From Ptychodera flava (lineage: Eukaryota; Hemichordata; Enteropneusta; Ptychoderidae), in assembly GCF_041260155.1 (NCBI RefSeq), contig NC_091933.1:24647174-24711173 (forward strand): DNA of 64,000 bases. The letters run 5' to 3'. The position numbers and the translations under genes are program-made. The notes under the pieces were generated by a model. That model searched no databases and had not been told where the DNA came from. It saw nothing but the letters and a program-made list of their open reading frames with translations. Every line of letters begins with the position of its first letter. Position 1 is the stretch's first letter. Of the stretch, positions 350-48,483 are shown piece after piece.

Positions 350-3300
350 CTTCAGGTGTTCTAGCCATGAGTACATCAGACCACAGAGAACATACGGATC
401 TTCCTCGGTTGAAAGGATGTTCCATGCTGCACTTGTTGCATTCAGATCATTCTGGTATCACAAAAACACAACAATGCACATCTGGTGAATGAACATATTT
501 CCTCAGAGAATGGACACCCGGTGCCACATTTTAAAACATGAAAATGAACCTAACATTAACCTACAGATGTTTAATTTTTGGAGGTCACACTCTGACTTGT
601 TTGTGTGCATTAACTCTGGAAATCACATCCCCTTTACTAAGATTGTTTAGTCAACCATAAATTTCTGATAAATGCACAGAAAAAATACTTTATCAGATTT
701 ACCTGTGCCAACTATAGAAAGTGGCTGATTCTGGTTGCCTGAAGAAATGTTTGTTACTAATAAATATGAACAGGAATATTGTATAGATGTATTATACTTT
801 TAAGTTTTCGTGAGGTTCGCCATTGTGAAATGATTGAAATAACAGTGTCCCTTCTCTGATTTTTTTGGTTAAACTTAAGAGAGAATTATTCAGCTCCTTT
901 TGCACAAGGCAAAAAAGACATTCCAAAACTGTAACACTAGAGCCAAACAAGCAACCAATTTGCTCTGCATAAAATTTGTGTCATATTACCATTAAAATCA
1001 TGTTATTTACATGTGAACTGATCACTTAAAAAAACTCTTTTATAAAACCAATGTGCCTCTCCTTTGCGACTTCTTAAAACCAGATATGGATTTTTCATTA
1101 ACACAGAATGTGCTGACATCTCAAATATACTGGTCTGCATAGAATTTTCAATACACAATACATGCATACTCAAATTGATATATGGTTCTTTAAAAGCCTT
1201 TCACCACAGTGGTTTGGCTGAAACCCATTGTTATCATAGGTGAGTGTGGACCAGTCTATGGGCATTGGGGTAAACAGGTTGATAGGGACACTCAAATTTG
1301 GTATATGTGATCTGACACAAACAAAAATAACCCTTGTAAATCATCTCAGTTAGAGGAAGTTGCAAGCATTAATAATTGACAAGCTATCGGTAGATCATAT
1401 ATGGCGCCCTCTATCAGCCAGTGTCCTTCCCCCTAACAGTTGGCTGTGGGTGCTTGTTGAACTCATATTGTGTTTGTGTACTAATCGTGGGTGCAGCTGT
1501 TCACTTTTGCATGCGTTTACATTAAAACACAATCAATCAAAAGTATATGCTATAAAAACTAAACAATGCATGCGGTTTCCTAGGTGTGTGTGACTGGCGT
1601 AGGGGAGGGGACAATGGGGAATTATTTCATTCCTGCGGCACTCACATGAAATCTGGTGATGTAGTTTTCAAATTCTACAGGCAGAGTTTGCCAAAAAGTA
1701 AGACCATGAAACATGGCATGCATATGTTAATGAGCAGTGGCACTTTAAGCATCAGATGTCGCTCGTTCGAACGTGCGTGACGGTCGGTCAGATCTTATTA
1801 GCATATCAATAGAAGTCAAAGTTCCCTGCTGGAGTGAAAATCTTGATTACTCCTTGGAAAATCCGCCGAATTACGTAAACGAACCAGAAATTTTGTTCAC
1901 AAAATGAGTTAGGGAATGAGCAATAATCAGAGTTCAGGCAGGTATAGGTCATTTTATTGAATTACGCTCACTTTGGTTTATTTTGCCGTTCAAAGTTCCG
2001 ATACATGTTGTGTCGTCGTAATAGACCCACTTTCGATGGCAGTTGGCCCGCAGCTATCCGTGGCGGGGTTGACCTTTGACCTGCATAGCGATCCCCGCTA
2101 CCCCGCCAACAGATAGCTGCGTTTCCACAGCTAGTTGTGAGTGTAAGAAAACAGAGTCAGAAAAAGCGCCCAGGTGCTATGATGGAAGGTACATAAGAAC
2201 AAACTGAAGCTGAAATATCAGTAAAAGGTCTACAAAGTATCAAAATTTTTAATTTTAACGTGAAGTGACCTCATTATTGAAATGAAACCAGTGACCTAAT
2301 TCTGTTAATTGAGATGCTTTTTTCCCATGGGCTGTTGAACTTACAAAGTTGTTTTATTGAAATGCAGCTATGAGAATATTAGAATTACCGCTGATAACTG
2401 CATGGCTAGACAATGACACATAACTGTATGATGATGTATCTCTCATCACTTACAATGCCTATTCGATCGAGCTGAATTGTTTCTTCTGAAGTTGGCTTGT
2501 TAGTCGATGAAACACTGACGTGAGGTTGATATAATATCATTGTCAGCACTGAGTAATCACAAACCAGAATCAAGAGAAGAAATACCAGGAGTAAAAACAG
2601 AGGTTGACTGGTGTTGTACCTATAAAACCTTGTCAATTCTTCACCCAATATGAAGCGCAATGGTTTTGTGGCACTGTGTGTTATGATTGTCTCCACATGA
2701 CTGAGCACTAGTCTTTAAGAAGAAGTGCAATCAAAAATGTCAAGTGAGTGGCATGCTTGCGTGGAAAAACAAAAACAGTGCTGTGGTGCATAGTTGCAGA
2801 AAAAAAAGAGCGAGCTGCAAATTAAAAAAAAAACAAACCTATCAAATGAATGAAAATAAAAAAAAAACTGAAGCAATGACCTACTTGCAGTGATTCCAAC
2901 CTCTGTTTCAAAGCCTGAAAATTAGCAAAGGTAGAATATTTAGCGCTTGAATTATGGAACAAAAACGTGTACAGGATGAGTTGAAAGACATTAGATTCTT
3001 ATAAATACTTAAGAAAGTTGAACAATCATGAATGCATTAAAAGGACAAACAGATTATTTGTTGGTAGAGAATCTCAAAATGCAGATATTTTCATTTATAA
3101 ATTGACCTTACTGTACTTTATGTGGGAAGGATGAGTGCCTGAAAGCCTGATTTAATAAAGCATGTGAATACAATAAGAGAGCATTATGGGAAATTTTTAC
3201 AACCATAACATCACGGGCATCATCAATGTGCCCATTACTTACTTTTCACTAAATTCTATTTTGACGACTGAGATATCTAAAGAGAATGCTGTTAGTTACA

Positions 3301-6300
3301 ACCATTGTCAAATTATGGCTTGCTGCCACCTTAAGACCAGCTAACATTGAAAAAACCAATATCTTTGACTTCATGAATGGTGTTATTGTATATAAAGTAA
3401 ATGCATGGCAGCTTGGGCATCAGAAAAGTAAACGTTGCAAAAGAAAGGTAGTAAGCTTACCTGGAAAGCGTCCACTCGCACCCTCTCATGTTGGTCTACC
3501 TTCCTGTTCATGTTGAAGGCCATGGCTTTGGCAATGACCTGTATGTCTTGGTTGTCTTCATGTACTGAAAGAGATTCACTGATTTGACTCAGAATGGAGC
3601 TCCTCCTTGGCAGTGGGCCGCGGCTGAATCTTTTCCTGACGGGCCTCTTGTTTTTCCCGGAAATCAGCCCCGCATCGATTGACATGGCCGTGGACATGAG
3701 ATTCTCCCGACTGTCTTGGGAGTTGAGTTCTCTCTGCAGCTCAGCTCTTTTGATTCCCATGTACGACTCACTCCTCGTCGTCAGAGGCTCATCGTCCGAA
3801 CCGGAAGATCCTGCGTTTGTGTGCTCAAGATGTGACCTGAACCTCAAATTGGGACTCCCCGGCATTCGCTTGGGTAAGGGAACCTTCATCAAGTCATTGT
3901 CTCCATTCATTTCAGAATCAGGTACCAGTGATTCAGCACTCTTGCTCTTACGTATCGGCGGTAGTTTTAAACTTTCTCCAGGAGCATCGATTGGATTGTC
4001 GTTGATTATGTCAAAGGCTGACCTCTGTTTGTTTCTCTGCTCTGAGAAAGCATTGCCGGCAGTCTCCTTCTCAATCTCAAGTTTTTTCTCAAGTGGCAAG
4101 TGAAAGTCTCCGTAGTAGTTGCCAAGATCGCTGTTTGCAAGTTCTGCCAGCCTTTTGCAGACTACATGGACAATCTGAGAAGGAAACAAAACAGATGGTG
4201 GGTATTACTCTGTGATTCTGCTTGGCAAACACACAACAGACTGAATTCTTGGTGGACAAAAACAACATGTACAATGATCAGCATGGACAAATTTACAGTA
4301 TTCTCTCCAGGAACTTCTAATGAAACAGCAGGTTATCACTTAAAACAAAATTCCAGGCACATTTTTGATCTGAGGGATAATTTTTGGTCTACAGTACATG
4401 TATAACAGAATTACAGAAGCAGTACTACTTTTTTTTCCGTGAAACTGGACCCTTACGTGCAAAAAGATACTGGTTACTACTTGTTGATTGCTTTTGGCAG
4501 AAAAGTGATTACTCATATAAACTTCTTCCTTGTTTTGTCTTTCACAATGAGTATCAAAATCAACAATCCATGATACTTAGAAGTAACACTGCTTTATACC
4601 AAAATTTGGTTGTTTTGATTTCTCACCTTTGGTATGTATTTGAGTTCCCTTGCTTCATATCCATGTAACATATGCTTCTGTCGGATTAAGTACTGGCTCA
4701 GTGTAAATGCATAGGCACAGGGATCTCTGTAATCACATCACATTTAAGTCATCATTGCATGAAATCCTCCACAATTCACTTATCTTAATCTTTTTAAGCC
4801 CTCCATCCCCTTAATCCTTCCTTTCTGGGGTCAAACCATACAACTGGATGCCTTCATACACTGAGAGTTGGCTTTATTTTAATCTTACGGGAGCAGGCAA
4901 TTTATGTGCTTTTTTACAGGTAAATTGACCACTTTGATCAATATTTCAATGGGTCTAACACCATGAAAATACCAAATGTCAACAAGGACTAATGCAAGAA
5001 CCAGAGACTGAGGACAGCCCCTTTAATTTTTGCTCTGGGCAAACAAAAGAAAGTGTAAAATTCTTGTGTGTCATTCTTTACACATGAAAAAATGCTTGAT
5101 CACTTGTTGTCCTGCTAACAGTGCTCAAACTTTAGTCAAAGTAGAACCACTAAATTTTAACATTATCTTAATGTCATAGACTATTTGTAGTGTGTACGTG
5201 TCAGACAAAACCCTGAAATGATTATTTGGGAAAAAAAGAAAACAAACTCGTGCAACACCAGACAGTGACGATTCTCATAATCCCCTGAGGCTTAATTAGA
5301 AGGCATGAAAAATCTATGACGACAAAGAATACTTTCCGTACTGTTTTTTTAGACTGTGTGAGATCTTGTATGGTCTGCAACAAAACATAGCATTTGGTGC
5401 ATATGCAATACCTGGAAGACACAGGTTGGCAAACGGAGGTTAGAGGTCACTTTATAGAGTGACAGTAGGTACTTACACTGAGGAAAATACCACCCTGAGT
5501 GGTATCAAGAATTTACCAAATTGCTGGCAACACTCCACTTGACCTTTGGTTTGAATGGCACCAGGCCTGTAAAATTCAAAAAAACAAATCTGTTACCATA
5601 GGGACTGTAATTTCAAATGATGCAGATGTATGCAAATATTGAGCCTTGGTCACAATATGGCCCCTTTCACAATTATTTTTTGGTGTCAACAGAATCATTC
5701 TCTATAGCAAAACTGGTCTTTGATGTTAAAATACAGAAAATGGTGATGAAATGGGAAAATTTGGCAGTGTTCAGGTGATTTTGTCAGGACGTAAATCCTG
5801 AATCGATGCTGTGAGTTAAATTTTTCCTTTATTACAGTCTGATAAAACAAAACAATATTTGCTAGGTTTCACTGTGAATATAAACACCAAAAACATAAAC
5901 GTACTGAAAACATGTCGCAGATACAATGAGGTTATAGAAACAGTTATAGAGTTAACGAGGAACTTGAAGACTAACCTTTTTTCTCTGACAAAATGAATGA
6001 CCTGATCAGCTTCCATCCGCTTTGCATAAATGAGATAGCACGCTATGAGAACACCTGTGCGTCCAAGTCCTGCATGGCAATGCACGGCAGCCTGAAAACA
6101 CAATACATTCAAGAGTACAATATACACATGACATGACAACAAACAGCAATTGAGGGAAAAAGTGAAAGAAAGGGAAGATCCCCTCACCCACCATGTGTGG
6201 TCCTTCCCTCCTCCCCCCTTCTATCAGTCTACTTAAACATGAGGTTCAAGCTAGCAACAAATATTTTGACCAGTTTGGGAAATATTTTATTTATAATACA

Positions 6301-9300
6301 TGGACTGCAGCCCTGCAACTTTCATATTGTGCATTTTGCTGCGACAGCGACCTTTAATGGTGGGGCACTCTTAAAATGCCAATTTTTTATGTCATTTGCC
6401 GCTTGTGTTCAGATAAAATTAATATATCATATTTTACATATTACATGACTACATGATGATGTTGGCATTCACCAATTTATGACACTTGGTTACAAATTTG
6501 TTGGACTGTCTGCTTTCTTGTCTTCATATCTTTCAGGACTATGCTCTCATTGTTAATGTAACCTTTTGCTTTGTAAGTTTTTTTGTAAAAAAATAATTTC
6601 TAAATCAAAGTTCTCTGATATTGTAATTTATTACTGTGCAAAGAGCAAAAATCTGTACGAAATAGTTTGAAAAGGATAAAACATACTTCAAGAGAAACAT
6701 GATATACCTAAAACGAAAGTTGATCGGTGTGGTGTTGAAGTGACGACAATCTATGATTTGTAGGGTTCTCAAACAATAAATTTCAGGGATCAACAGTGTT
6801 GTATTGCTAAGAGTTCAGAGTAGGTTGTGAACTTTAGTGACCTGTGTGCGTGCATATAAAGCTGTGTTTTTGTTTGCTTTCTTCCCTCTGTTGCCATGAC
6901 ACCTGTCTAGGTTACCTGGTCTACTTGAATAACTCCAACGCGGTGTGGTACCAGATACTACTGTAGGCTTTGATAGAAGCTGGTTTCACTTTCTTACTAA
7001 TGCTGGATTTTTTATGATTTCACAGAATACCCTCACATGTTCCATGTTTCACTATCAGGAAAAATTTGTCTGAAAAGGTACGCTGACTCTAGTCTGAACT
7101 TAAATTTGGATAATCAAAAGCTTTACAATCATACCGGTAAACACAATTACTGAATTTTTCTTAGGTGTATTGATTTACTGCAAGTCTATGAAAACAAAAT
7201 AGTTTGGGTTGGATAGATCGACCTACATGTACTTTAGTGAAGGGGTGTCAGTTTGATAGTCTGGGTTGCGTGAGATTCTGTTGTACATAGAGGATCTATG
7301 ATTGTGAACACCCATTTCAAAGAGCAAATGCACCAAACACTCCACAAAGTCAAAGCATATATTTGCAATTTTTATAGTAATAGCTGATGTACTTTAACAA
7401 GTCTAGGGGTCAGAAATTCATGACATGGCTTTGTGTCAAATTCACTTTTCAAACATTCAAACATTCAGTCAGGCGACATGGTTGCAGTTTGCAGTTTAGT
7501 TGCAGTGTTTCTTTTGAATCACAGTGTAATACTGATGGTGAATTAGTTGGTGTTTTTATGTTTGTGATTTCATTCCTCTTACTATACCTTTCCCTGTTCC
7601 AAAGCAAACGACAACACTTTGACCATATCCAGGATGTTACGCAATGACCCTACACCATGATCTCGCCATGCAAAGTTATAGAAAAAGACTGTTGATGAAA
7701 TAAAAATACATATTTTAAAAACGAAAAATCAAGTCAACAGACACGAGGAAGACATAGAGGAGATGTTTACCTTTCCTTCCTGTAATGCAAATGACATGAC
7801 CTTAACCATATCAAGAATGGACGGCAACGATCGGACACCATAATCATCCCAACCAAAATTGTAAAAGAAAACTAGAGAAAAGAAATGAAAAAAAATTTTT
7901 ACATAGGTGAATGAAACATACAGCTGTGCCTGTAAGCCATGTAACATTTTGCTGTTCTGAAAAAGTTGACAATTACTTCCGGGTATCCCTTGGTACTGAT
8001 ACTATTACATTCTTTTCTGTATTATAAAGTGGTTCACTGTTAAATATGTTTTAATTTCACAAGAAATTAAAAAATACTGATTTTAAATCATCAAACTAAT
8101 GGAATATATAAACAAAGAGGATTTAACCTTGCTGGTAAAATTAGTAAGAAGACATTTTTTATACTTTATGACATTATATGTTTTATTGGTAATGTTGAGA
8201 TATAATTCAGGTACAGGAATCTCACGTCATTTTACTTTGCACATCGAACTAAATAAACTAAAGGTTTTATTTTCTAGGATCCTGACCATGGCATATTTTC
8301 ACTATTCAATTTTGAAATGAGCTAATATTATCAGCCATTTTTGGTTAAACAGTACGTTGAAAAATTTCAAACAAATTGGATTGGCAACCTGAATATTCAA
8401 TATTAAACAATAGATGCAAAGCAATAAAAATCAGATGTTGTGGTTGCAACTCTATTGACAAACCCACACTGACCAAGGGTTGAACCCAAAATGTCAGGTT
8501 TTTATTGTTCCTCTACCAGTGTTGTTACTCTGAATATCTGTTTTCTATCCTGAAAATCTGGTTTGCTGTTTCATATCTGTACTAAGGTACCGTTTTAACT
8601 CTTTTTTATGAGATGCTTTTTCTTTTGACTCTTGAAAAATATGTGGTCCTTGGTGCTCTCCAATCCTGTATTTGTTGACAATGGACATATCAAATTTACG
8701 AGCATTTTTGGCAGATATCCTGAACAATGACTGAATATTAATTTTGACCTGAAGCTGACCCACCAAAAAATGAAAAATTGAACTGTTTTCATAAATTATT
8801 GATGTGATTACCATCTTGATAACAAAGCTGCTCATAGACAATTTTTGCATTCGCCTTAAGATAGCAGCAATCCAATACCGTAGGTGCATCTACAGAAAAC
8901 TATGCAGAGTTTTGTCTCCTAGATCCATGTTTTCTGATAAATTAGACATACAATGTTTCAGGGCAACTAGCTGATATTTATCAGTCCTGAGGCTAATCAT
9001 CAAAATGGGCTATTCAATATCCCTGGCTGAATAAAAAAGGCTGAAAAAAAAATTCATCATTGATTTATTCATTTGCTATCAATTATTTATCTCTTTATTC
9101 ATTTACAAATCTTTCATAATGTTCCATACTCTTTTATTGTGTGTCATTCCTTCAAGTATGGCATCTAATTGTGTTTCTTGCTGTAAAATTTACCGTAAAA
9201 CCCTATTGATTCGACCACTTTATTAATTCGACCACCCTATTTTTTTTTCTCAAAAAGTAATTTTTTTTTTACCCTTATCAATGTGACCACAGATAGAAAT

Positions 9301-12300
9301 TGGGACCTTCTCAATCTCTAATAATTCGACCAACCAATAAGGACAAGGTGTTTTAAACATTTTATTTTTAATAAAATACACAGAACAATACAATGTACAG
9401 AATAGAATGTCTGTGTCGGAACTTCAGGAAAGTCACCTTTATATGTTTCAATCATCCAAGATAATTAAGCATATCACTTATGAACTGTTTAAAAAGTTGA
9501 AATCCCTAATAATTCGACCACTAAAATTATTTTGGCTTTGTTTATTTTCTAATAATTCAACACTTTAAAATTGTAATTATTTTTTCTGGTCGATTTGATA
9601 GGGTTTTTACAGCACATCACCCTGTAACCATGGTTTTGAACACACTGGTCCAAACATGCCCATAATGTCCTCAAAAAGTATAAGCAGGAAGTTCATAAAA
9701 TAAAATACTTTTGGCAACATGAAAAGCAACCTGAAGTCCATATACAAATGACCATTTGAGGAAGTATTGGGAAGAAAATATTTCACATTGTCAAATCAAT
9801 CAACAGTAGCTCCAATACAGTTAGTTCATGATTTATGTACATGTATGTGTAGTCAGAGCTACACAGATGGAGTTTGTGTAAAAGTTTGCAAGTCTTAACA
9901 GTGTTAGTTGTAAAATCAAAGTTACAAGTTCAATTTTATCCACATGTAAAAACTGGCATTGGAGTAGATAGAAATATGGATGTATTCTTTTACATGTCGA
10001 CTTGATAAACGCTAAATCAAATTTCTAAATTTAAATTCTTCAGCATTAGAGATAAAATGTATGTTCAAGATTTTGCTGAATGGTCAGGTATTAAAAATAT
10101 GTCTATTTTGATTATGAAATTCACATGACAGCAGTTTTTGTGAAACCTTGTGCGACACGGGGGGGAAGACACAGTGACTTACCATCATTGTCCATGAATG
10201 TTTGCGGTAAATAAGAAAACCCACTCTCCTCTTCAAGAGTGTTGCCACAACTGCTGTGCTCCCCTGGTCTCTGTAAATTAACTATCGATGTTATTCCCAA
10301 TCTGTGGAAATAAAAAAATACGCAAACATTGAATTAATATTAATTTTGTTTTCTTTATTCGTTTGATGAATTCATGTGACATATATTGCCAGCAGTACAA
10401 TGAATGATTAAAAACACAACACTAGACTTGTGGGAACATAACTGGATCATGCTGGACTCAAATATACCATTACCAAGGCCTATTATGTTTCTTCAGTTGG
10501 GTTTTTGTGTTTAATTTCTAAATTAAGCCAAGCTACCTCTTTTGACAAGCCATAGAAACAAAGCCTGGCTGACCTGTTCCTTTTAATTATTGAATGCAAA
10601 CAAAAGAGTAATAAAACCAATCAACTTAAAGTAACCACACAGACTATTGAAACCTACCCATATATGATCTATCATTCTGAAATTAACAAAAACCAGGCTG
10701 TACATTTTGAAATTGCTGATGGCAATCTCTTTTATGTTAATGGCAACATGAAAACTACACTCTTTGTTTACTGCTGCTCATCATGCATATGGAGGTACGT
10801 TGGTACAAGGTACAGTACTGAGAAACAAACATTACATGATGCACACCAATTGGTTGGAATTTTGGACTCATGTAAAGTCAAAATGGTAAAAGGTCAATTT
10901 TTATTGGGGGTTTACATTTAAAAGCCCTTGACAAAAATTTATTTGTAATATAGACCAAAGCTGCAAAGATGTGGTATTGAGCAGAATAATTTTTCTTCAA
11001 TTTTAGTGACAGGTATTATGACAGGCAGGCGGTAAGAGAGCATATTGTTACAACAATGTTGAATCACTCACTGCATAGTTACATTACTGGTTGATCCCTT
11101 AGCACACGAAAATGTGAATACACAGGACAAGTTATGAGGTATAATGTAGTACATGCAAGATGTACACCTATGATTTGTGAGACGTCTGCTTACTTTTTAA
11201 ACTGTCCTATGATGTCAAACTTGTCGACAATATCCGTTGATGGTCGAGATATGGCAATGATGTCGTCAGTAATCCTGCATGGAAAGAGACCAGAGAACAT
11301 CAGAGACAGTGTTTGCAATTAGGACTGTAAAATACTCCAAGATCAGCCACTGCCTTTGCAGCAATGACAAAGTAAGTGAAAATATCATACACTGTATACT
11401 ATGTGTACAAAAGACATACAAACAAAACACATGTTGCATGATAAGACGTACATTTAGGTTTTGTGGATCGTTGTATGTAAAAAGGATGTGGGTGAAATGT
11501 AACTCCTTCATCTGACTCACTGACTCACTGCTTCCTCCAAACAAAATGCTTGTTGTGAAATTTATTTCAAAGTAGCTACTCTGATCACATAAAGATGATT
11601 ACGGTATTCTTTCTTGTTGTGAAATTCACTTCAAAGCAGCTACACTGATATCCATCACATAAAGATGATTACGGTATTCTTTCTTGTTGTGAAATTCATT
11701 TAAACACAGCTACACTGATATCCATCATATATATCGTATAAAGGTGATTATTCTTTCTGGCTATGATTTAGATACTGGGTCAATTTTATATGAGAGAAAT
11801 ACAAAGACGCACAGACAGATTATTGCATGTGGGTTAATTCCTCAGAGGCATTTATCACTGATTTAATTTTCACGTTTGCTGTGATGACTTCTAGTTTTTG
11901 GTTTGATGAGCATCTGTTTGTGATTTTGATGTGTGGAATATAGAAACTGTTTGACCTCTCCCCCTCATCTCCACCTACCAATCCAAAAAGATGAAAAAAT
12001 CAGCTTTCACGTGCATCAGTGTTTTCAAGGATTGATGGCATCTCAATTACAATAATTCACCCTAAAATCCTTCACAGCATTTTAAATCTCTCAAATCTTT
12101 GACAGCAATGCATTAGTGATCATTTTTGTCTGTAGGTAGAAAATTATTGATGCCTTTGTTAAGTGCGTCTGGAGGCTGATAATGCATGTACTGGAAAAAT
12201 TGGCTGATAAATTGTAAATCTTCTTTTGGTGGTAAAGTGCACCTCTGGGACAAATCACAGAAAACTTAAAATCTCTTTTAAATCTTTCACATTTTTAATG

Positions 12301-15300
12301 ACAGCTTCCAGGGATTATTTTCAAAACAATAAGGAAACCAGGAAGCTTAATCTTTCATTTTAAAGAGCATAAGTAATTCAATTTTCTTGGGAGTTGACTC
12401 GGCCAATGAATTCCATTTTGAATTGCAAATACATCTACAGGTAAGTTTCAGGTACTTTGCTTCGCGAATCCAAAAATTTATTTTGTACCAGCATGCCTTC
12501 TGAGCTGAATTGACACGCCTATGACTCAAAAATGTTGTGTTTTTCGATGCAAGAATATTTTACACATTACCAGTTAATGGTATACGTGCAAGGCTGATGC
12601 TACGAATTTTCCACAATTTCTTAACAGATTTCAGATATGTCATATGCGTAACTGAAAGCGTATACAGATGGCAACCCTTGACCTCTATCCTTGATTATAA
12701 GAAGTAGTTAGAGTTCTTTGAGAAGAGAATGGGCAAAGCGTTTTTTTTAGGTTTAATATAGTGCATGATCTGAGGTCCCTATGGTTTGCATACTTAAACA
12801 CTACTAACAACTACACTTAAAGGTATACTGTCACCTGTTCCAATTTTGCCACAATTACCATAGGAAGAGAAAATCTAACCAATCACAGATTTTAAGCGGG
12901 TGGCCACTTTTTAAAAACAGCGCCCTTAAATGGGCATTTTGAATACAAAGGAACGCCCAGGAAAGCTCCTTTGACCATATATGGGCATATTTAAATTACA
13001 GGTGACTGTATACCTTTAAAATCTGTGATTGGTTAGATTCTCTCTTTCCATGGTAACTATGGCAAAATTTGAACAGGTGACAGTATACCTTTAAGGTGGT
13101 TGGAAAGGCTATTTTTGCACCAATTCTTTTCTCAGAGTTAATGTCAAGTTTCAAGTGTTAGAATCAAGATATTTAGTTCAAATTTTCAGGATAAGTCTCT
13201 TTGTTATTACTTTCTCCGAAGAATATAAAAATTGTATATTTGCAGCCATGATTTTGAAATATGACACCAGTAAATATTAAAATTTAGTTTTTCATATTTT
13301 TTTTACATATTTTAATTTAATAATAATTGGATAGTATTAATATTACCAAATTAGTTATAAATATGTTGACACTATTTATTGTAAGATTTGTACGGCAGGA
13401 TTTGTAAATAAAATTTGTTTTTATGATTTTACATAGGTTTATATATCAAAAAATTATTAAAAATTCTTTCAAATTTCAAAATGTGATTTTTCAAAAAGTA
13501 CTTCAAAGACAGGAAAATTGTGCAATACAAATCTTATCTGTAACCTTGTTAATAGGCTGTAAAAATTCCATGTCCATATCTCATTTCAAAGTTGGATTAA
13601 ATTGGTATACAATTACGTAGGAAAACTGTTATTCTGTCAAAAATGTTGAAAACAAGCCATATATGCACCCCTCGTTTGAAGTCATAGAGCAGTTTTTTTG
13701 GTTAATCTCACTTTTGACACCTCTTTGACACTCAAAGAATCTAAAAATGCATTTACAATAGCAGTCACTCACTCTGAATGCCAGCACCGCCTTGTCAAAC
13801 TTTCCTGAAAAATAGCAAATAATGACTTTCCCTTTTCAAACATTTTATTAAAAGCTAGGGGACCTCTACCATAGTTAATACACTAAGGACTCCCCAACTT
13901 CTTCTTATTTGGTCAGTTTTTCAGAAGTTTTAACAGGCTATAACTCTGCAATGCCTTTGTGCCCAAATGTCTAGTTTTTTTTATTCCACAGAGAATGTTG
14001 ACTACTTTTATATTTTAATAGTTTTGTTGAAATTTATAACTGACGCTCTAGCCTTTCCAACCACCTTAAGTCACGGCATAAACAAATACTAAAATGTCAT
14101 GCATTAGGTGTTTTAGTATCACAGTGATGTGTGCAATAAATCAATGAAATGAAATTAGAAGTTGCATGGTGGTGTCGGAACACTCCAGACAACGGTCACT
14201 CTAACAAGTGGTTTCATCAGATATCATTACGTAGACTCACCACTCAGAGAAGAGGCCTTTAACAACCATCCTCTCAGGGGGCCAGTTTCCTTTGCTTGGA
14301 TTGCAGTATTTACAGTTTCTGCCGCCACAGAACATAGAACACTGCCAGGATCCCGGCGTGATCTGTCGCAAGCCGTCCGACAGCACGCCATATTTAGCGG
14401 TTGGTTTGTTCGTACTGCCTATGTGTTCCCCTGCACTGGACGTCCACTTGATCTCCCCTCTAGGTGTACTAGCCATAGCATGGTCTGAGCAAAACAAACA
14501 GAATTAAAAATGTTAGAAATAATAACAGATTCAACAATGTCTGAAAATGAATGATTGATGTGAAATCATAGGCCCTATAGTCTATGGTGAAATCAAGACA
14601 AGAGTTGAAGGCATAGAGATATAGGCAATCTTGACTTTTCCATATTATTGTTGTTTCTCAGAGGGACAAGACATAGCTATTACTTTTGATAATATTTTCA
14701 TAATTTTTGTTCAACATATCAAGTAAAATTTTCTTCTTTGTCTCCTTTCTGTATTTTCAACTAAGTACAAAACATAATATAATGTTTTTGTCGACAAGTT
14801 AATCTTCGGAAGGCCTAAAATTCAGCTATCAACATAACCATTTCACATTACATCATAGACAGTACAATTGTAGAGGGGAGACCCTCTACTGTGTATGATT
14901 ACACAAACACATATACAGGTTGTGTTGACAAAAGTTGAACACTATGCATTTCAACATGATTTGGGGAGTAGAACAAAAAAAACCATTATTTTATGAATGA
15001 AACTAAATATATTGTGATTATCTTAGCAATATTCGTCTTGAAGGTTGACATTTATTTTGAAGTCGAGCTGTTTACATAGACATGAAATACATGCGCCATT
15101 GCCATAGCAACACATATTTATCTTTGATGCATTGATGTGGTTTCTATGAGAGAGAGGTCAAATATGATAGATGCATAACCACACTTGACCAATGATCATG
15201 AATGCATTCAAGAAAAGTAGTAGATCAAAGTGAGTATAAGTGTTGGTAATGCACAATGGGAAGACTGAAGAAAGACTGATGTCTAGTAAGTGCCTTTATG

Positions 15301-24491: not shown

Positions 24492-24507
24492 AAAAGCCCA
24501 GTGACTG

Positions 24508-25223
24508 TCTTACTGACAGGTACAAAGCTACTCTATTCAGCCGTCTTAATTCAACAGAAATTGTCAGCAATTCAGTAAATGATTTAAATTGGAAGATTTT
24601 CCATCGAGGCCTAGTCACAGGAAGCTTGGCCAAAACTTTCAATTTAAGTGATGGGAAATGCCATATTTGTGGCCAAGAAGAAACACTGGAACACATCTTA
24701 TTTGAGTGTAAATATGTTAAAGAAATCTGGCAGAAATGTATTTCTTTCTTTGTCAGAAACCACAACTTTGGTAATAACATCAATATCAAAAGATTAGCAA
24801 TTGCAGGAATCGAAAATGATAATAATGCAACATCTGACATTATTTACTGTATTACTTCCTTTGTAAAATATACAGTTTGGAATATTCGAAATTCGGTTAC
24901 TCTTGATGGGATTAAAGTTTCCCTTCAATCCTATGTCATGCAATTGAAATGTCATCTCTCTTCATGGATGAATACATTGTATTTCATTTATAAGATGATG
25001 AACAAAACTGAGGATTTTATCACAAAGTTTTCAAGCCTTGTAAGACTGGAAGGAGAAGAATGCATCCTGAATGCATTCATATGATGATCTTTGTAATCAA
25101 ACAGCTAATTATTTGTTTTTTCACACAAGACGCATTGTAATTTTAATGCATTCACAGTTATGTAGATTTGTTTTATTTGTGACTATGTTGAAATAAATTT
25201 ATCTTTTTCAAAAAAAAAAGAAA
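24508..25223 (+). mobile_element. 5'-truncated LINE, 3' end with poly(A) and 16-bp target duplication
   Basis: The open frame up to the stop at 25084 is the C-terminal end of a non-LTR reverse transcriptase protein. It has a zf-RVT type knuckle, C-x2-C-x7-H-x4-C, in CHICGQEETLEHILFEC. An AATAAA signal lies near 25191 and an A-rich tail ends it. AAAAGCCCAGTGACTG is found directly before (24492-24507) and after (25224-25239), a perfect target-site duplication. The intact frame and duplication point to a fairly recent insertion. No RT catalytic domain is present. Confidence 0.88.
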
Positions 25224-36500: not shown

Positions 36501-39500
36501 ATCTGTGACACTGCCACCGGCCGCTCGACCGACGACACGTAAGCTGACACATGTGTGCCAGCCCTTGGAAATATATTGTAACTCCTTGACAGGCAGATGA
36601 GATTGTCTTATAGCGTTTGATGCATTGAAAGTTTGTAAAAAAATAATAACAAATGGCATCACCGATCATAAGAAACGTGGTGTTGAAGATAATAGTTTTT
36701 AAAAGAAGACTATGACAACCATATTTTGTCTGTAAGTATTATCTAACTTTCGAAAACCAACATCTAAAGATTTACTTCAACCAACACTTTTGGATTTGTT
36801 CTACTCTTTATTATAAGATTAGTCGATTTCTGGAAAGTAGGTGTACATTTTCGATGTCTGTGTATCATCTACACCGAAGTTATATCCGAAAGAGTATAAT
36901 CAGTTCCCGACAGCGTAAACCTCTCTCTCCCTCTCTCCGGCATTTCAATGTTTTATATTGTCGACATTTATATATCAGTCTGAAGTTTCAGGTCACTGCT
37001 CAATGCAAGTACTGGGTAGTTGATGTCAATTTTTCCGTATCGGGCATGGTCTCTATCGTCACTCTAATCGTTAGTGTTTTCCTGTTATATTCCATATCAA
37101 ACTCAAAACACAACGTGAACAACGCTGATAATGTATTGCTATTTGTATGGAAGTTTGGATTAGTGTGGACGGTAATGTTTTGTTTGTGTGGGGAAAGCTT
37201 ATGGCGAGGCGAAACAAACATTTTTATTAACACAAACAATCGGATAAGAATGTACGAACACATTTTAGAAACCAATAAAACACAAACTCGACACAAAAAC
37301 ATTTGGATAGTTAGGTGGGGAGCCTCTTTGACATTCTTTACAGCCAGTACGACGTCGTCCATTTCAGCCATCTTGTTACAAACAATGCTTGGCCATACAC
37401 ACCTTTTGAACTCGAGAGGGCGCATTAAGACGTCTTAAACATCAAAACAATGGCTCAATTTTGTGTATGTGGACGCAAGCGGACTCAAGCTATTAATCCC
37501 CTGTGTTTACAAATCACAAATAGTGTTGCAGAAGCGGTTCAATTTTCCCTGTCTGAACATAGTAAAGAATGGCCAAATATCTTTCTTACCTGGATCAGGT
37601 GGTTTGTTGATCAGCATGGTGTGCATAGCCATAATGTTTGGTCCAGTGAATGCTTCAACATACTTCAAAAGCTGTACAGAAAATTTAAGAACCGCTAGAT
37701 ATACATTTACCACCAACAAACAGATTTACAATACAATTCAATTTATAATTAAAAGAATTTCTTGGTACAAATCCCCATGTTCTACACAGTGGTTCAAGAC
37801 TACAACCATTATCTCAGTCGTCTCCTGACAATTATGTACACATATACATACATACACATGCACAAAACCCACATTCCATCATCCAGACTACCCTGGGTTC
37901 AACTCCAGGAGAAGAGCACAACCATCGCCAGGCTGCTGATCTAGCTGCATGTACACTGACATGACAAATGTTTCAAATATTAGTTTGTAACATGTTACAT
38001 CACAAATTGCATTCATGACTGAAAATGTATAAATATCAATAGCTCTCGTCTATCATATTTTATAATATAGATGAGGTTTTTCTAGCTCTCATCTATCATA
38101 TTTATAGATGAGGTTTTTCAAGGTGTCAATTGTAATAATGTATCTTGTAGAAATGTTGACTAAGTAATAAATTCTGAATGCCATTTTCCTTAACTTTAAA
38201 AAATTGAAAATATTAATCTCATGGCAATGCATGAGGGTTTCATTTTTCTGCTAGATTTAAATCTAATTTAAATTCCATGATGAAACACAACTTGCAAAAG
38301 TGGTGAAAGAGCTAAAAAAAAGGCTCAAGGTTCAGTAAAGTTAAGCCATTTGTTTTGTCTTTGACACATCAGCTGGAACGAGATGTCTGACTGACCTCAG
38401 GTAATCTGCAATAGTGCATCATCTCCGGAACATCTTGGAAGTTCTGTATCTTGGTAACCGCTTTCTGGCCTGGCACAAACTCTGCCTTTGCTATGGCAAC
38501 ATCTCTCATGATCGTCAAAGTTGGTGGTTTTGGCATTTCTCCCTTGCACAGCAGTTCAAAACATTCTCTGGGAAAGGAATACGCAATTGAAAGACAGTAA
38601 TTCTGTGGCAAGGTTTAACCACTTCACCGCTATGGTTGGTCTCCCACAATCATTATCAACAGTGAATGTGGAGTTGTTCACAGGAGCATTCAGGGGTGAG
38701 GGTTTAAACAGCATAGAGATATGTTTAGGAAACACTGAAATTTAGTTTAAATAACTTTGACAAGTTACATGGGTACCAGTCAACTCGCACCTTTTCCAAG
38801 CCGCCCAGAACCAACTCGCCCGATACCAACTTGCCCGATTCCAACTCGCCCGATGCCAACTCCTCGATACTATTTTACAGTTTTATGAGTACGTGGTGCA
38901 TATAAAACGATTTGTTCCTAACAACAAATATTTCTAACATTGGGAACCACAGGTGCGCGCTTGAAATATATGTGCCAACACGGAAAAGTTTTTATTTGCG
39001 ATTTTCACGTTTTGGAAATCTCTTGAAAGAGTAAATTTCATTCCGCTTCTTTACATATACGGAAAGTTACTGCAGTTACAGGCTCACGTCTTCAGAACAG
39101 CAGGACTGTCTTTCAAGAGTTACTGGCCCAGCATGAAAATAGCTGGCCTCGGGCCATCAGGTTAGTGTACATGGAATCTAGAGCTACATCTCAAACCAAG
39201 GGTGAGTTGGCATCGGGCGAGTTGGAATCGGACGAGTTGGTATTGGGCGAGTTAATTGGTATCGGGCGAGTTGGAATCGGACGAGTTGGTTCTGGGCAGG
39301 TTGGAAAAGGTGCGAGTTGACTGTAATTCGGGGTTTGCGTAACATTTAGTATAATACAAATGGTAATTAAGTTTGCATATCATGTACAACTGATCATTTG
39401 TATCTATTTCACACAGTGGTGAAATAATCTAAAAAGTGTCAATTTTTTTTTTCATTTTATCTCAGTCATGAAGACTGAAGAGAAAGCTGATACTAGTACC

Positions 39501-42500
39501 TGTACTTCTCTAACTTTTCTGGTGATACCAGTTTCTCGATAACCAAGTATCCATTCTTCTCATAGAAGTCTGCCTGCTCTGGTGTCAGTACTCCATTGTT
39601 CAGAGTGTAATTGATCGCTGGGTGGGCAGCCACAGCCACAGCGGATGTATCACAAGGACTCTACAGTCATGGTTAAGGTATTTTTTATGTCCATGGGTAG
39701 ATGTACTGAATGAATCCCCTATTGTACATACTTTTCACATGACTTATTTGTTGCAGCTACATTAGGGGATGACATCACAACTTTCTGGCAGCAACTTTTA
39801 AGTAAAATCATAGAATGAGGATAAAAACAGTTTGTTTATTGTACAACTTGGATACATTGTTGCCCTTTTGAAAGTGTTCAGTTTTGTACTTTTTCTAATT
39901 TTGGAATGTCCCATACCACTCTTAGCCCTGCGTATGACACTGATGCTGTGTGTTCTGACGTTAACGTACAACGTTGGGAACTCACAGCATCGTACGCAGG
40001 GCTTATAACCTCACTCTCTGCTAGTGTGATTGAGTATAATAAAGATTGATTGATTAACAGGTCACATAAATTGTTTTGTGTGTTCAATGTGAGGGTGGAG
40101 GTAAATTTTATTTTCACTTCCATGGTATGTTACACAAATTCACATAATGATCTCCGCAAGTCTAAAAGAAATAATTATATACAGTTTGGAAGTGGCTAGT
40201 CGCACCAAAGCGATGCGAATAATGAATTTAAATTTCTTATTTGCCCCTGACAGCCTAAACACCAATCAGAAAGCGGTTTACATGCACCAAAAGAAATTGT
40301 TGCTTTCAAACATACAACAAAATCTATTTCAACAGATTTTGCTGTTTAAAGTGGAAACTTTGGGCTGTTTAATGTCGATTGACAAGCTTTGATACACCAA
40401 GGCCAGAAACACATTTTAATGTCATAATTATATTTAGTTGGATTTCACAAAGATTGTGAAAACATAATCAATCAAGTCAACTTAGTGTAAGCTCTGATAC
40501 TTGGGTGACACTTGAGTGCCATGAAGGCTGTCCGAACTTCTTTTCGGGCTTTCCGTTTCCAAGCTTTCCAGGCAAGTGAAAATCCTGATGTTGTTCATTC
40601 TCCCTGGAACTTTATGACACAAGTTCATTCTGTCTGTTTAATATGTCCCTGATCCTTGTCAGGGGATGACGGATTTCGCTGCGAGACATAACGATTCTTT
40701 TTTTCTGTATCCACCATGCTGCTGGGTGAATTACACGTTCAGTCCTTATCCGACCCGCTGAATAAGAAATTTACAGGCCGAATAAGAAATGTACTTTTCT
40801 TACGAAATTTAGATTCCTTATTTGCACCGCTGCGGTGTGAATAACATCCTCCTCATAGTTGGGTCCTACTTATTACTGTTTACCGAAAAAAGTACCAATG
40901 AAATGTACGTCTCCATATTTCTTCAGACAGGAAACTGACATGTATCATAGCAATCTGTATTGTGTGGTTGTTGACAGAACTGAGTGTTCACACTCATAGT
41001 GCCTCAATTTGATGTAAATTGATAAATAGGCGTATACCATTGTTTATTGTCCGTATTTTACAGTATTGGTATTCAAATCAGTTATTTTTGTACGATGGGC
41101 GTCTGCTTTGTCAAACGCATTCAGTGTTATTAATGGCGTACGGCAAGGCAGCAATCTCTCACCTATGCTCTTTGCTGTGTATGTAGACGATCTAAGTACA
41201 AAGCTACAATCAGCCTGTTGGATGCTGTTTGGTAAACACAGTTGTTAATCACCTATTTTATGCAGATGACTTAGTTTTGATTTGCCCCTCGGCAAAAGCA
41301 TTACAAAAATTAATTAACATATGTGAACACTATGGGGACAAGCATGATATTGTTTTTCATCCCACTAAAACAGAATGTATGGCTATTTTCCCGAGGTCTT
41401 GGAAACCTAACAGAATTCCTATCGTATTTTTATATGGAAAATCTCTTAAATTTGTTAACACTAAAAAGTATCTCGGATATATTGTTTCTTCGTCGGGGGA
41501 AGACAACGCTGATATGCACAGGCAACTTCGATGTGTTTATGCTAGAGCTAATTGGATTGCGCGCAATTTTAGCTGCTGTTCACAGATTGTGAAATGTACC
41601 CTTTTTAGAAGCTTTTTATATAGTATGTATTGTCTTAATGTTTGGTGTAACTACAGTGCTAGACAGATGTCAACTCTAAAAGTGGCTTATCATAATGCAT
41701 TGCGAATAATTTTTGATCTTAAACGTGATGCGAGTATCAGTCACAATTTTGTATCAAGAAATATTTTGAATTTTGCTTCATTGCAACGAAAGTTACTATT
41801 GAACTTTTGCAAAAGATTAACAGAAAGCAAGGATTCTGTAATATACAGTTGTGTTAATTCTGATTTTTACTTTAATTCAACTTTCTGGCAGCATTGTAGG
41901 AATGTATGCATTAGTATTTTCAGTAGTTTTTTTATTCTTTTATAAAATTTATTTTTCGCTGTAATGCCTACATTTTAATGTTTTTCTTGGTATGGGCCGA
42001 TGGCCTGAAATAAAGGTAATAATAATAAACGATGATGTGACAGAACTCAGTATAAACGCATTTATTTACATGCAGACGGGAGACAGTACAGTGACACTGG
42101 TGCTCGGAACCACAGGCACCCTGACCCATGGCATGGGTTGGGTAGTCTGCTTGATAGAGTGCTCGTCTGCTCGATCTGTCGACCGCGTACCTGATCTGCC
42201 CATGGATGTAAAATTTACATCCATGATCTGCCCTACACTGCAAATACATTGCAGGAGGGCAGATCGAGTGCGCGATCGCGATCGACCAGACGATCGACCG
42301 ATCGATCAAGCAGACTACCCAACCCATGGACGCCTGTGCTCGGAATTGCCAATGTATATACGCAGAGAGAAAGACTGAACTCCTCCCCTCGTCCCTGTGG
42401 TACAGTACAGCAGCTGAATTCTGTATCACCGTCTTACCAATGCAATCCGTGCGCACATTCAATGAGTGCGGCGAATTGTGATGGAGGAAAGGATACAATT

Positions 42501-44456: not shown

Positions 44457-44876
44457 GTTCTCCTCACAGGTTATCGTAACCACGGGGGACCGTGTCGTAA
44501 CGTTGCTTGGATAGTCGTTCGAGGCGGGCGGCCGAAAGTCGCCGTTTAGGGGTGAACCATTTGATTTCCGGGGGGTGGAGGAAATGGGTGGGGCAACAAT
44601 TTTTTTTTCCCCATGACTGTGACAGCAAATTTTTTTTTTTCTATTGTCAGTCCTGCATCAAATTATTTTTTCTGTATGCAGTGGCAAAGCAAATTTTTTT
44701 TTCTCGCTTGCCAATTTTTAATACAATATATATGCTATGCATACACGTTATTGGTTCACAACCGGATGTTTTAATAATTTGTTGTGTTCATGGTTCTGCT
44801 ATTAAAATTTTATGTACAACAAATAACTTGTAAAAAATCCATTTGGAGCTGACTGATCTTGTGAGTGCTGTACCTA

Positions 44877-45380
44877 ATGCAATTAAAAGAGGGAGACAAG
44901 CTATCTGCATTCAATCAGGAAAAACACCAGCAACTGTATAGCGATATGAAAGAAGTATCCAACCAGACTGACAAACTTGACCAGCTGTACTCAAGCTGTG
45001 TAGCAGACGTGGAAAAACTCAACAAGAAATCTGCGTCATACCAAGAAAGTATGGTTTTCTACCGCTCTCTACAAGCCAAGGTCAAGGCAGTTGTGCAGAT
45101 GGTAAATGAGAAAATGGCCACCATATCAGCTGTGCATGAGAAATACAAAGAACTGTACGGAGCTAGCCAGCAGGCAGCAGCCAATAACAGGAGAGCTGCT
45201 AACGAAAAAAGAAAGAAGAAGAAAAGAGCTGCGATATCAGCATCACTCAATACCAATCCACATGTCAAGGCAAAGTGCCGAAGAGAGATGGCAAAGGACA
45301 TCCACTCAACTGACATTGTCACTTTATTCAACAGACAAGAAAGGGGAGACAAAGGTAGTCATATCAGCAGATTATTTTGA
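44877..45380 (+). CDS. Coiled-coil protein or exon inside TIR element
   Basis: A 167-residue frame from the ATG at 44877, closed upstream by a stop at 44862. Residues 10-110 are strongly heptad-like (KLDQLYSSCVADVEKLNKK, YRSLQAKVKAVVQMVNEKMA). A basic stretch NEKRKKKKRAA and a conserved-looking tail (MAKDIHSTDIVTLFNRQE) follow. A GACAAAG/GTAGTC junction at 45346-45358 and a TTTCTTACAG at 45550-45559 could be splice sites, so this may be one exon of a longer gene. No family recognised. It is the only coding candidate in the transposon, so it may be captured host sequence or an accessory protein. Confidence 0.45.
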   Translation: MQLKEGDKLSAFNQEKHQQLYSDMKEVSNQTDKLDQLYSSCVADVEKLNKKSASYQESMVFYRSLQAKVKAVVQMVNEKMATISAVHEKYKELYGASQQAAANNRRAANEKRKKKKRAAISASLNTNPHVKAKCRREMAKDIHSTDIVTLFNRQERGDKGSHISRLF

Positions 45381-47309: not shown

Positions 47310-48483
47310 TAGTTCAATGTCCTTGTACCAACTTTTGATTAAAATTGGTTGAAATATGCCGAGTTATGGCTTTGTACATGAAAAAATCATAACAAAAAGG
47401 CCGCCACAGCAGCCATATTGGATCGTATCACAAAACTAATTAACATGCATATGTATGACATTGGTCAATCTCCTTGTACCAACTTTGAATAAATTTGCTT
47501 GATACATGTCTGAGTTATGGTTCTGGACATGAAAAAACATAATAAAATGGCCACACGGCGGCCATATTGGATCGTATCACAAAACAAGTCAATGTGCATG
47601 TGTATGACATAGGTTGATGTCCTTGTACCAACTTTGAATAAATTGGTTGAGATATGCCTGAGTTATGGCTCTGTACATGAAAAAATCGTAACGAAATGGC
47701 CGCACTGCGGCCATATTGGATCGTATCACAAAACAAATTGATGTGCATAGCTATGACATTGGTCAATGTCCTTGTACCAACTTTGAATAAAATCTGTAGA
47801 AACATGCCTGAGTTATGGCTCTGTACATGAAAAAATCGTAATAAAATGGCCGCCTGGCGGCCATATTGGATCGTATCACAAAACAAATTGATGTGCATAT
47901 GTATGACATAGGTCAATGTCCTTGTACCAAGTTTGAATAAAATCGGTTGAGATATGCCTGAGTTATGGCTCTGTACATGAAAAAATCGTAACAAAATGGC
48001 CGCACTGCGGCCATATTGGATCGTATCACAAAACAAATTGATGTGCATAGCTATGACATTGGTCAATGTCCTTGTACCAACTTTGAATAAAATCTGTAGA
48101 AACATGCCTGAGTTATGGCTCTGTACATGAAAAATCGTAATAAAATGGCCGCCTGGCGGCCATATTGGATCGTATCACAAAACAAATTGATGTGCATATG
48201 TATGACATAGGTCAATGTCCTTGTACCAAGTTTGAATATAATCGGTTGAGATATGCGTGAGTTATGGCTCTGTACATGAAAAAATCGTAACAAAATGGCC
48301 GCATGGCGGCCATATTGGATCGTATCACAAAACAAATCGACGTGCATCTGTATGACATATGAAGTAATCCTTGTACCAAGTTTGAATGAAATCGCTTGGG
48401 CATCTCTGAGATATCTGCGTGAACGACGGACGGACGGACGGACGCACGCACGCACGCACACACGCACGGACATGACCAAACCT
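47310..48483. repeat. Tandem array of eight 149-151 bp units with dimeric order
   Basis: TCCTTGTACCAA starts at 47320, 47471, 47620, 47769, 47919, 48069, 48218 and 48368. Each unit holds GAGTTATGGCTCTGTACATG, ATGGCCGC..GCGGCCAT and ATTGGATCGTATCACAAAAC. Units at 47769 and 48069 share AATCTGTAGAAACATGCC; units at 47919 and 48218 share ATCGGTTGAGATATGC, so a two-unit repeat of about 300 bp exists. The array ends in GACGGACGGACGGACGCACG and a hairpin AGTCCCCCCGGAC/GTCCGTGGGACT. Long minus-strand frames across it are a by-product of the near-150 period. Confidence 0.92.

What the first reader, a model, noticed from the sequence alone, without database searches (positions are those of the whole stretch)
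7588..7871. Mutually exclusive exon pair swapping the general-acid loop of PTPDC1
Two adjacent exons, both exactly 101 bp with the same phases and good splice sites, code alternative versions of the segment just before the catalytic P-loop. They share 25 of 34 residues and both keep Asp178, but the loop reads GWDDYGVR in one and AWRDHGVG in the other. Inclusion of both breaks the frame, and the 82-nt spacer is short enough to hinder splicing of both. This would give two phosphatase isoforms with different charge around the general acid. I know of no such pair in vertebrate PTPDC1.
Basis: partly seen in the sequence, partly recalled or inferred. Interest (0 to 1): 0.8.

Follow-up and report, generated by a model that had tools for sequence, protein, structure and literature searches.

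The report
Two interchangeable phosphatase acid-loop exons
An animal phosphatase gene appears to carry two old, interchangeable versions of the exon that encodes its catalytic acid loop, so one gene could make two enzymes with the same phosphate-binding pocket but different loops.

Summary
On the minus strand, inside one PTPDC1-type gene, lie two 101-nt exons, 5a (7771-7871) and 5b (7588-7688): AG/GT borders, phase 1 in and 0 out, 82 nt apart, 25 of 34 residues and 69 of 101 bases identical. No third copy lies between exons 4 and 6. Synonymous sites are randomised (8 of 23 conserved non-M/W residues keep the codon; 7.9 expected by chance) while dN is 0.16. Both copies therefore stayed under purifying selection after an old duplication. 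Including both or neither gives early stops. The two best predicted branch points of the 82-nt intron lie 37 and 42 nt from its donor, inside a published <50-nt steric criterion; weaker ones at 55-56 nt lie outside it. I conclude: a genuine mutually exclusive pair swapping the WPD-loop module (GWDDYGVRSLPS or AWRDHGVGSLRN) and keeping W and the general-acid D. 5a is vertebrate-like; 5b is derived, has the weakest of ten donors scored, and is probably the regulated form, so "good splice sites" does not fit the 5b donor. No transcripts or animal relatives could be examined; exon use and spread are inferred.

The parts
7771..7871 (-). Exon 5a: 101 nt, phase 1 in / 0 out; V|FFYNFGWDDYGVRSLPSILDMVKVMSFALQEGK; vertebrate-like WPD loop
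7588..7688 (-). Exon 5b: 101 nt, same phases; V|FFYNFAWRDHGVGSLRNILDMVKVLSFALEQGK; derived WPD loop, weak donor AAG|GTATAG
7689..7770 (-). 82-nt intron between the pair; two best predicted branch-point adenosines 37 and 42 nt from the 5a donor, weaker ones at 55-56 nt
   Evidence: branch-point matrix recalled
10183..10301 (-). Upstream exon 4 (LGITSIVNLQRPGEH...FMDND|), ends in phase 1
5976..6091 (-). Downstream exon 6 with the catalytic P-loop HCHAGLGRTG, starts in phase 0
   Evidence: Pfam DSPc
11194..11274 (-). Exon 3 of the same gene
14241..14404 (-). Exon 2, part matched by the recalled human PTPDC1 (5' border of the exon not settled)
5477..5566 (-). Exon 7
4627..4726 (-). Exon 8
3461..4174 (-). 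Exon 9 (long; only its first residues resemble the recalled human protein, E 1.9)
350..451 (-). C-terminal exon (NDLNATSAAWNILSTEEDPYVLCGLMYSWLEHLK); exons between 3461 and 451 not mapped; the gene probably continues past the window edge

Best explanation
It is a tandem-duplicated, mutually exclusively spliced exon pair in a single PTPDC1 orthologue of an animal. Shown from sequence: two homologous, equal-length, phase-matched exons, each of which alone keeps the frame, both held under purifying selection until synonymous sites were randomised. Inferred: mutual exclusion comes from (1) steric interference, since the two best predicted branch points of the 82-nt intron lie 37 and 42 nt from the 5a donor, so 5a is not easily joined to 5b, and (2) a frame-shift and early stop with decay of any transcript that has both or neither. 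5a, with the strong pyrimidine tract and the better donor, is the default; 5b, with the weakest donor scored, needs activation in particular cells. The protein consequence, inferred: one phosphatase scaffold and one P-loop are combined with either of two WPD-loop modules. Both keep the W and the general-acid D, but 6 of the 9 replacements fall in the 12 residues of the loop, including the residues just before and just after the acid (D-D-Y versus R-D-H), with a gain of about two positive charges in 5b. Both isoforms should be catalytically competent but differ in loop dynamics, pH profile or substrate preference.
For: Exact anatomy and frame logic. Constraint: 20 of 31 differences in the 33 whole codons are at third positions (binomial P 0.0004); 8 of 23 non-M/W conserved residues share a codon against 7.9 expected from uniform synonymous choice; Nei-Gojobori pS 0.95, dN 0.16; neutral simulation 0 of 20000. 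One gene: nine tblastn hits of a recalled human PTPDC1 with E at most 1.4e-5, all on the minus strand in gene order from 14404 to 350; apart from overlaps of up to ten residues at exon edges, only 5a and 5b cover the same query segment. Steric criterion: branch points at 37 and 42 nt against the <50-bp criterion of Hatje 2017 (PMC5740500, passages seen), met by 57 of 629 human clusters; 377 of 629 have frame-breaking lengths. Base rate: in a Drosophila X-chromosome test only 90 of 16180 non-exclusive exons share these features with a neighbour (PMC3228551, passage). Competence of 5b: the Y_phosphatase match, which starts at the loop (residue 46), is better with 5b (31.6 versus 29.1 bits); LAR domain 1 reads AWPDHGV against AWRDHGV of 5b.
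Against: No RNA reads, ESTs or animal relatives could be examined. No whole genome is held; four collection scans found no relative, in viral and prokaryotic collections where none is expected. The 5b donor is weak. Steric exclusion is only predicted: two weaker branch-point candidates at 55 and 56 nt (2.1 and 2.6 bits against 5.8 and 5.2; best of intron 5 is 3.4) lie beyond 50 nt, and some animals splice introns of about 60-80 nt routinely (recalled); the seven introns of the isoform-a model run 409-2966 nt, so the species' minimum is unknown. The equal DSPc scores (44.1 bits) do not test the loop, as that match starts at residue 52 (5a) or 54 (5b), after W-x-D. Fewer PDB sequences pass E 0.001 with 5b than with 5a (105 against 163). 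Very recent loss of 5b cannot be excluded from one genome. No significant docking-type pairing was found.
Confidence: 0.87

Rival explanations
1. 5b is a decaying relic of an exon duplication: once used, now spliced rarely or not at all, with 5a the only productive exon.
For: 5b has the weakest donor of the ten scored and is the more derived copy: of 9 a/b differences the recalled human residue equals 5a at 5 sites, 5b at none, neither at 4.
Against: An intact frame, intact AG/GT, preserved length and phase, and 25/34 residues after synonymous saturation need constraint over most of the copy's history. 5b keeps W, D and, apart from M to L and Y to H, the large hydrophobic and aromatic residues of 5a.
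Confidence: 0.08
2. The two exons are not strictly exclusive: 5a+5b or neither-exon transcripts are made as regulated, unproductive (poison) outputs that lower expression of the phosphatase.
For: Both outcomes give early stops upstream of further junctions. Weaker branch-point candidates at 55-56 nt would allow some joining. In 83 of 377 frame-breaking human clusters exon-joining reads were seen (PMC5740500 passage).
Against: The best predicted branch points at 37 and 42 nt make 5a-5b joining inefficient. It does not explain why both coding versions are preserved at the protein level, so at most an addition to the main explanation.
Confidence: 0.04
3. Assembly error or a second gene copy: 5b comes from a collapsed paralogue or haplotype.
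For: No direct evidence; tandem repeats and transposon remnants occur elsewhere in the window.
Against: 32 of 101 bases differ with randomised synonymous sites, too much for haplotypes; no convincing second copy of exon 4 or 6 in the window (next best E 0.53 and 0.058); 5b sits in the right order, strand and phase.
Confidence: 0.01

Closest known systems
Tandem-duplicated, mutually exclusive internal exons (236 tandem-duplicated events in the human gene set, half of them internal; Martinez-Gomez 2022, PMC9741552: abstract, outline, passages and part 1 of 4 of Results seen)
   Same: Adjacent homologous exons, functional residues kept in both copies, large hydrophobic residues changed least, ancient origin.
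   Different: PTPDC1 and words beginning 'phosphatase' do not occur in its main text, but it names DUSP13 (a dual-specificity phosphatase, recalled) as one event covering the whole protein. [quoted passage not shown]
KHK exon pair, one catalytic arginine inside the swapped exon, conserved in both (PMC9741552)
   Same: An enzyme whose alternative exons carry a catalytic residue that both copies keep.
   Different: A kinase of another fold (recalled); not a mobile general-acid loop.
Human exon clusters with branch-point proximity or frame-breaking length (Hatje 2017, PMC5740500, passages seen)
   Same: Both criteria apply here: best predicted branch points under 50 nt from the donor, and lengths not divisible by three.
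   Different: There backed by RNA-seq; no transcript data here.
Laboratory WPD-loop swap chimeras of classical PTPs (PMC12905499 and PMC8031367, passages seen)
   Same: WPD-loop sequence is exchanged on an otherwise constant phosphatase scaffold; the passages report changed stability, loop conformation and, for one set, reduced activity.
   Different: There engineered between different classical PTPs; here natural, by splicing, in a PTPDC1-type phosphatase.

Membership tests
Mutually exclusive exon pair (criteria of Pillmann 2011, PMC3228551, passages seen) | About the same length | tested here: met
   101 and 101 nt
Mutually exclusive exon pair | Conserved splice-site pattern and reading frame | tested here: met
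   AG/GT in both, phase 1 in and 0 out; the 5b donor is weak
Mutually exclusive exon pair | Sequence similarity, adjacent in the gene | tested here: met
   25/34 aa, E=1.5e-14; 82 nt apart
Mutually exclusive exon pair | Joint inclusion prevented or non-productive | tested here: met
   Frameshift and early stop, a sequence prediction; steric criterion met by the two best predicted branch points, not by two weaker ones
Mutually exclusive exon pair | Exactly one of the two present in each mature mRNA | not testable with these tools
   No transcript data
PTPDC1 orthologue | Colinear homology along the length of PTPDC1 | tested here: met
   Nine tblastn hits with E at most 1.4e-5 in gene order from query residue 8 to 626, with no such hit for query residues 264-591; the human query is recalled and unverified, so orthology rather than close paralogy is inferred
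Cys-based PTP / dual-specificity phosphatase, catalytically equipped | P-loop HCxxGxxR and W-x-D general acid | tested here: met
   HCHAGLGRTG in exon 6; W-D-D and W-R-D in 5a and 5b; Pfam DSPc above its gathering score for both isoforms (44.1 against 33.5 bits), Y_phosphatase likewise (29.1 and 31.6 against 20.9)
Dscam-type docking/selector exon cluster (PMC11802352, passages) | Competing RNA pairing between introns | tested here: inconclusive
   Best of six segment comparisons reached 28, met by 22 of 400 shuffles, and by 15 of 60 against the whole intron 5; whole intron 4, 27 of 60. Only ungapped stems in one genome were scored

The most novel reading that the evidence does not exclude
A natural acid-loop exchange: an animal uses splicing to fit one phosphatase scaffold with either a PTPDC1-type loop (WDDYGV) or a loop that has moved toward the classical tyrosine-phosphatase form (AWRDHGV, compare LAR AWPDHGV), giving cell-type-specific enzymes that differ in loop dynamics, pH optimum or substrate class. 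The pair would be very old and could be shared across a phylum.
Probability: 0.35. Interest if true: 0.75.

Novelty: new member of a known kind. Interest (0 to 1): 0.52.

Why it matters
[quoted passage not shown] a pair that exchanges the catalytic acid loop of a tyrosine-phosphatase-type enzyme was not found in the searches made. If used, it is a loop-swap experiment that evolution has kept: same scaffold, same P-loop, two WPD loops, so how loop sequence sets PTP activity could be tested on one natural enzyme. It also gives a handle on PTPDC1, a poorly understood phosphatase linked to cilia and centrosomes (recalled).

Tried and rejected
Docking/selector RNA pairing: six segment comparisons with 20 shuffles each; the shuffles reaching the observed score were 5, 11, 13, 5, 2 and 0 of 20. 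The last, the 82-nt intron against the last 400 nt of intron 5, was re-tested: 22 of 400 shuffles reach it, and 15 of 60 against the whole intron; whole intron 4, 27 of 60. With six tests this is not evidence.

A third exon copy: none between exons 4 and 6 and none in the window at E below 0.3. A second gene copy in the window: none convincing.

Relatives: four collection scans, two each of viral contigs and genome contigs, confirmed no relative (29, 275, 148 and 58 pattern matches, none passing tblastn). These hold viruses and prokaryotes, so this says nothing about animals. The species was not identified. Rfam found nothing in the window at gathering thresholds.

Rbfox-type motif TGCATG: one copy inside 5b at 7667-7672, the only one on this strand between 5900 and 10400, 32 on that strand of the window. 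It is made by the F-A-W codons and may be chance; not used as evidence.

Nei-Gojobori pS of 0.95 exceeds the random limit, probably an effect of two-fold sites in a short exon; the codon-match count is the sounder measure.

Full report
WHAT IS THERE. The minus strand of the window carries a PTPDC1-type phosphatase gene. A human PTPDC1 sequence, recalled from memory and used only as a probe, gives nine tblastn hits with E at most 1.4e-5, all on the minus strand and in gene order from 14404 down to 350; weaker hits (E 1.9 and above) were not used except to place the start of exon 9. Splice borders were fixed by eye for exons 2 (3' border), 3, 4, 5a, 5b, 6, 7, 8, 9 and a C-terminal exon. Joining exon 2 (from an arbitrary start), 3, 4, 5a and 6-9 gives one open frame. 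Only one stretch is duplicated among those matched: exon 5, at 7771-7871 (5a) and 7588-7688 (5b).

THE PAIR. Both copies are 101 nt, enter in phase 1 and leave in phase 0, and are flanked by AG and GT. They share 69 of 101 bases and 25 of 34 residues. Between them lie 82 nt; the introns on either side are 2311 and 1496 nt. A scan for stop-free, phase-compatible AG-101 nt-GT stretches between exons 4 and 6 finds five: the two exons and three unrelated ones. The flanks have little ungapped similarity (36 of 80 upstream, including shared acceptor signals; 23 of 80 downstream).

AGE AND CONSTRAINT. Differences are concentrated at third codon positions (20 of 31 in whole codons, P 0.0004). Of the 23 conserved residues other than M and W, 8 use the same codon against 7.9 expected if synonymous choice were uniform and random, so silent sites carry no memory of the duplication; dN is 0.16. 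Neutral evolution of 5a to the same DNA distance kept at most 21 identical residues, so 0 of 20000 runs gave 25 or more without a stop (an assumed half of mutations are transitions). Both copies were therefore selected as protein for most of a long time. With the recalled human residues as outgroup, 5a is the ancestral-like copy: 27 of 33 identical for 5a, 22 of 33 for 5b, and at the 9 differing sites human equals 5a at 5, 5b at 0, neither at 4.

SPLICING LOGIC. Exon 4 + 5a + 6 and exon 4 + 5b + 6 are both open. Including both gives a stop inside 5b; including neither gives a stop in exon 6. Further exons follow, so decay of those mRNAs is expected (inference). In the 82-nt intron the two best branch-point matches lie 37 and 42 nt from the 5a donor and 45 and 40 nt from the 5b acceptor; two weaker ones lie 55 and 56 nt from the donor (recalled matrix; only positions 15-60 nt from the acceptor were ranked). 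A donor-to-branch-point distance under 50 bp is the published criterion for potential steric interference (57 of 629 human clusters), and frame-breaking length is the more common feature (377 of 629) (PMC5740500, passages). 5a has the better donor (4.06 against 1.64 bits) and the better pyrimidine tract (19 against 13 of 20); 5b has the weakest of ten donors scored. I infer 5a as default and 5b as regulated. Docking-type RNA pairing was sought and nothing significant was found.

PROTEIN LOGIC. The exon encodes the WPD (general-acid) loop and the helix after it (placement from the alignments to solved PTPs, and recalled PTP anatomy); the next exon holds the P-loop HCHAGLGRTG. The W and the acid D are kept. 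Nine residues differ, six of them in the 12-residue loop: G/A, D/R, Y/H, R/G, P/R, S/N. D to R immediately before and Y to H immediately after the acid change charge next to the catalytic group. Pfam DSPc scores both versions at 44.1 bits, but that match starts after W-x-D and so does not test the loop; the classical Y_phosphatase match, which includes the loop, is higher for 5b (31.6 against 29.1 bits), as is PF22785 (40.2 against 38.4), while PF22784 is level (29.6 and 29.7). The best PDB sequence match for both is LAR (E 7.9e-10 with 5a, 1.2e-9 with 5b), whose domain 1 loop AWPDHGV aligns with 5b AWRDHGV; fewer PDB sequences pass E 0.001 with 5b (105) than with 5a (163). So 5b does not look like a dead version. 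In classical PTPs, exchanging WPD-loop sequence between enzymes alters loop conformation and stability and, in one set, lowers activity (PMC12905499 and PMC8031367, passages); a functional difference between isoforms is a fair inference, not a result.

WHAT IS KNOWN. The published criteria for predicted mutually exclusive exons (length, splice pattern and frame, similarity; PMC3228551, passages) are met; in that paper's Drosophila X-chromosome test only 90 of 16180 non-exclusive exons share these features with a neighbour. [quoted passage not shown] Five library searches gave no paper that I could recognise as describing such a pair: searches returned none; the papers listed (5; 30 of 94; 5) were judged from listing and abstract starts only. 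A further search (15 of 23 listed) brought the exon-prediction papers. Subscription papers and genome annotations were not searchable.

LIMITS. One genome window, species unknown, no transcripts, no animal relatives. Constraint is inferred from the two copies themselves. The recalled probe and recalled weight tables affect gene naming, polarity and splice scores, not the frame, identity or codon results.

Noticed in passing
window 47310-48398: About seven head-to-tail copies of a 150-base unit (also fitted as 299- and 449-base periods), partly open as a repetitive ORF on the minus strand; no Pfam match at E 0.05 for the ORF 47518-48174.
   Followed up: partly
window 38777-39323: Element with long inverted ends (68-nt arms, 91% complementary, 411 nt apart) built of 15-base tandem units (ACCAACTCGCCCGAT), resembling a non-autonomous DNA transposon.
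   Followed up: partly
window 24494-25084 and 41196-41945: Probable remnants of non-LTR retrotransposons: zf-RVT (E 1.5e-8) and a reverse-transcriptase fragment just below its gathering score (29.4 against 29.6 bits, E 8.2e-7).
   Followed up: partly
window 36716-37438: Plus-strand ORF with a sub-threshold match to DUF4534 (24.6 against 29.2 bits), perhaps an exon of another gene.
   Followed up: no
window 44865-45380: 171-aa open frame, coiled-coil-like by eye, with no Pfam match at E 0.01; possibly an exon of another gene.
   Followed up: no
window 7667-7672: TGCATG, the Rbfox-type motif (recalled), inside exon 5b and nowhere else on that strand between 5900 and 10400.
   Followed up: partly
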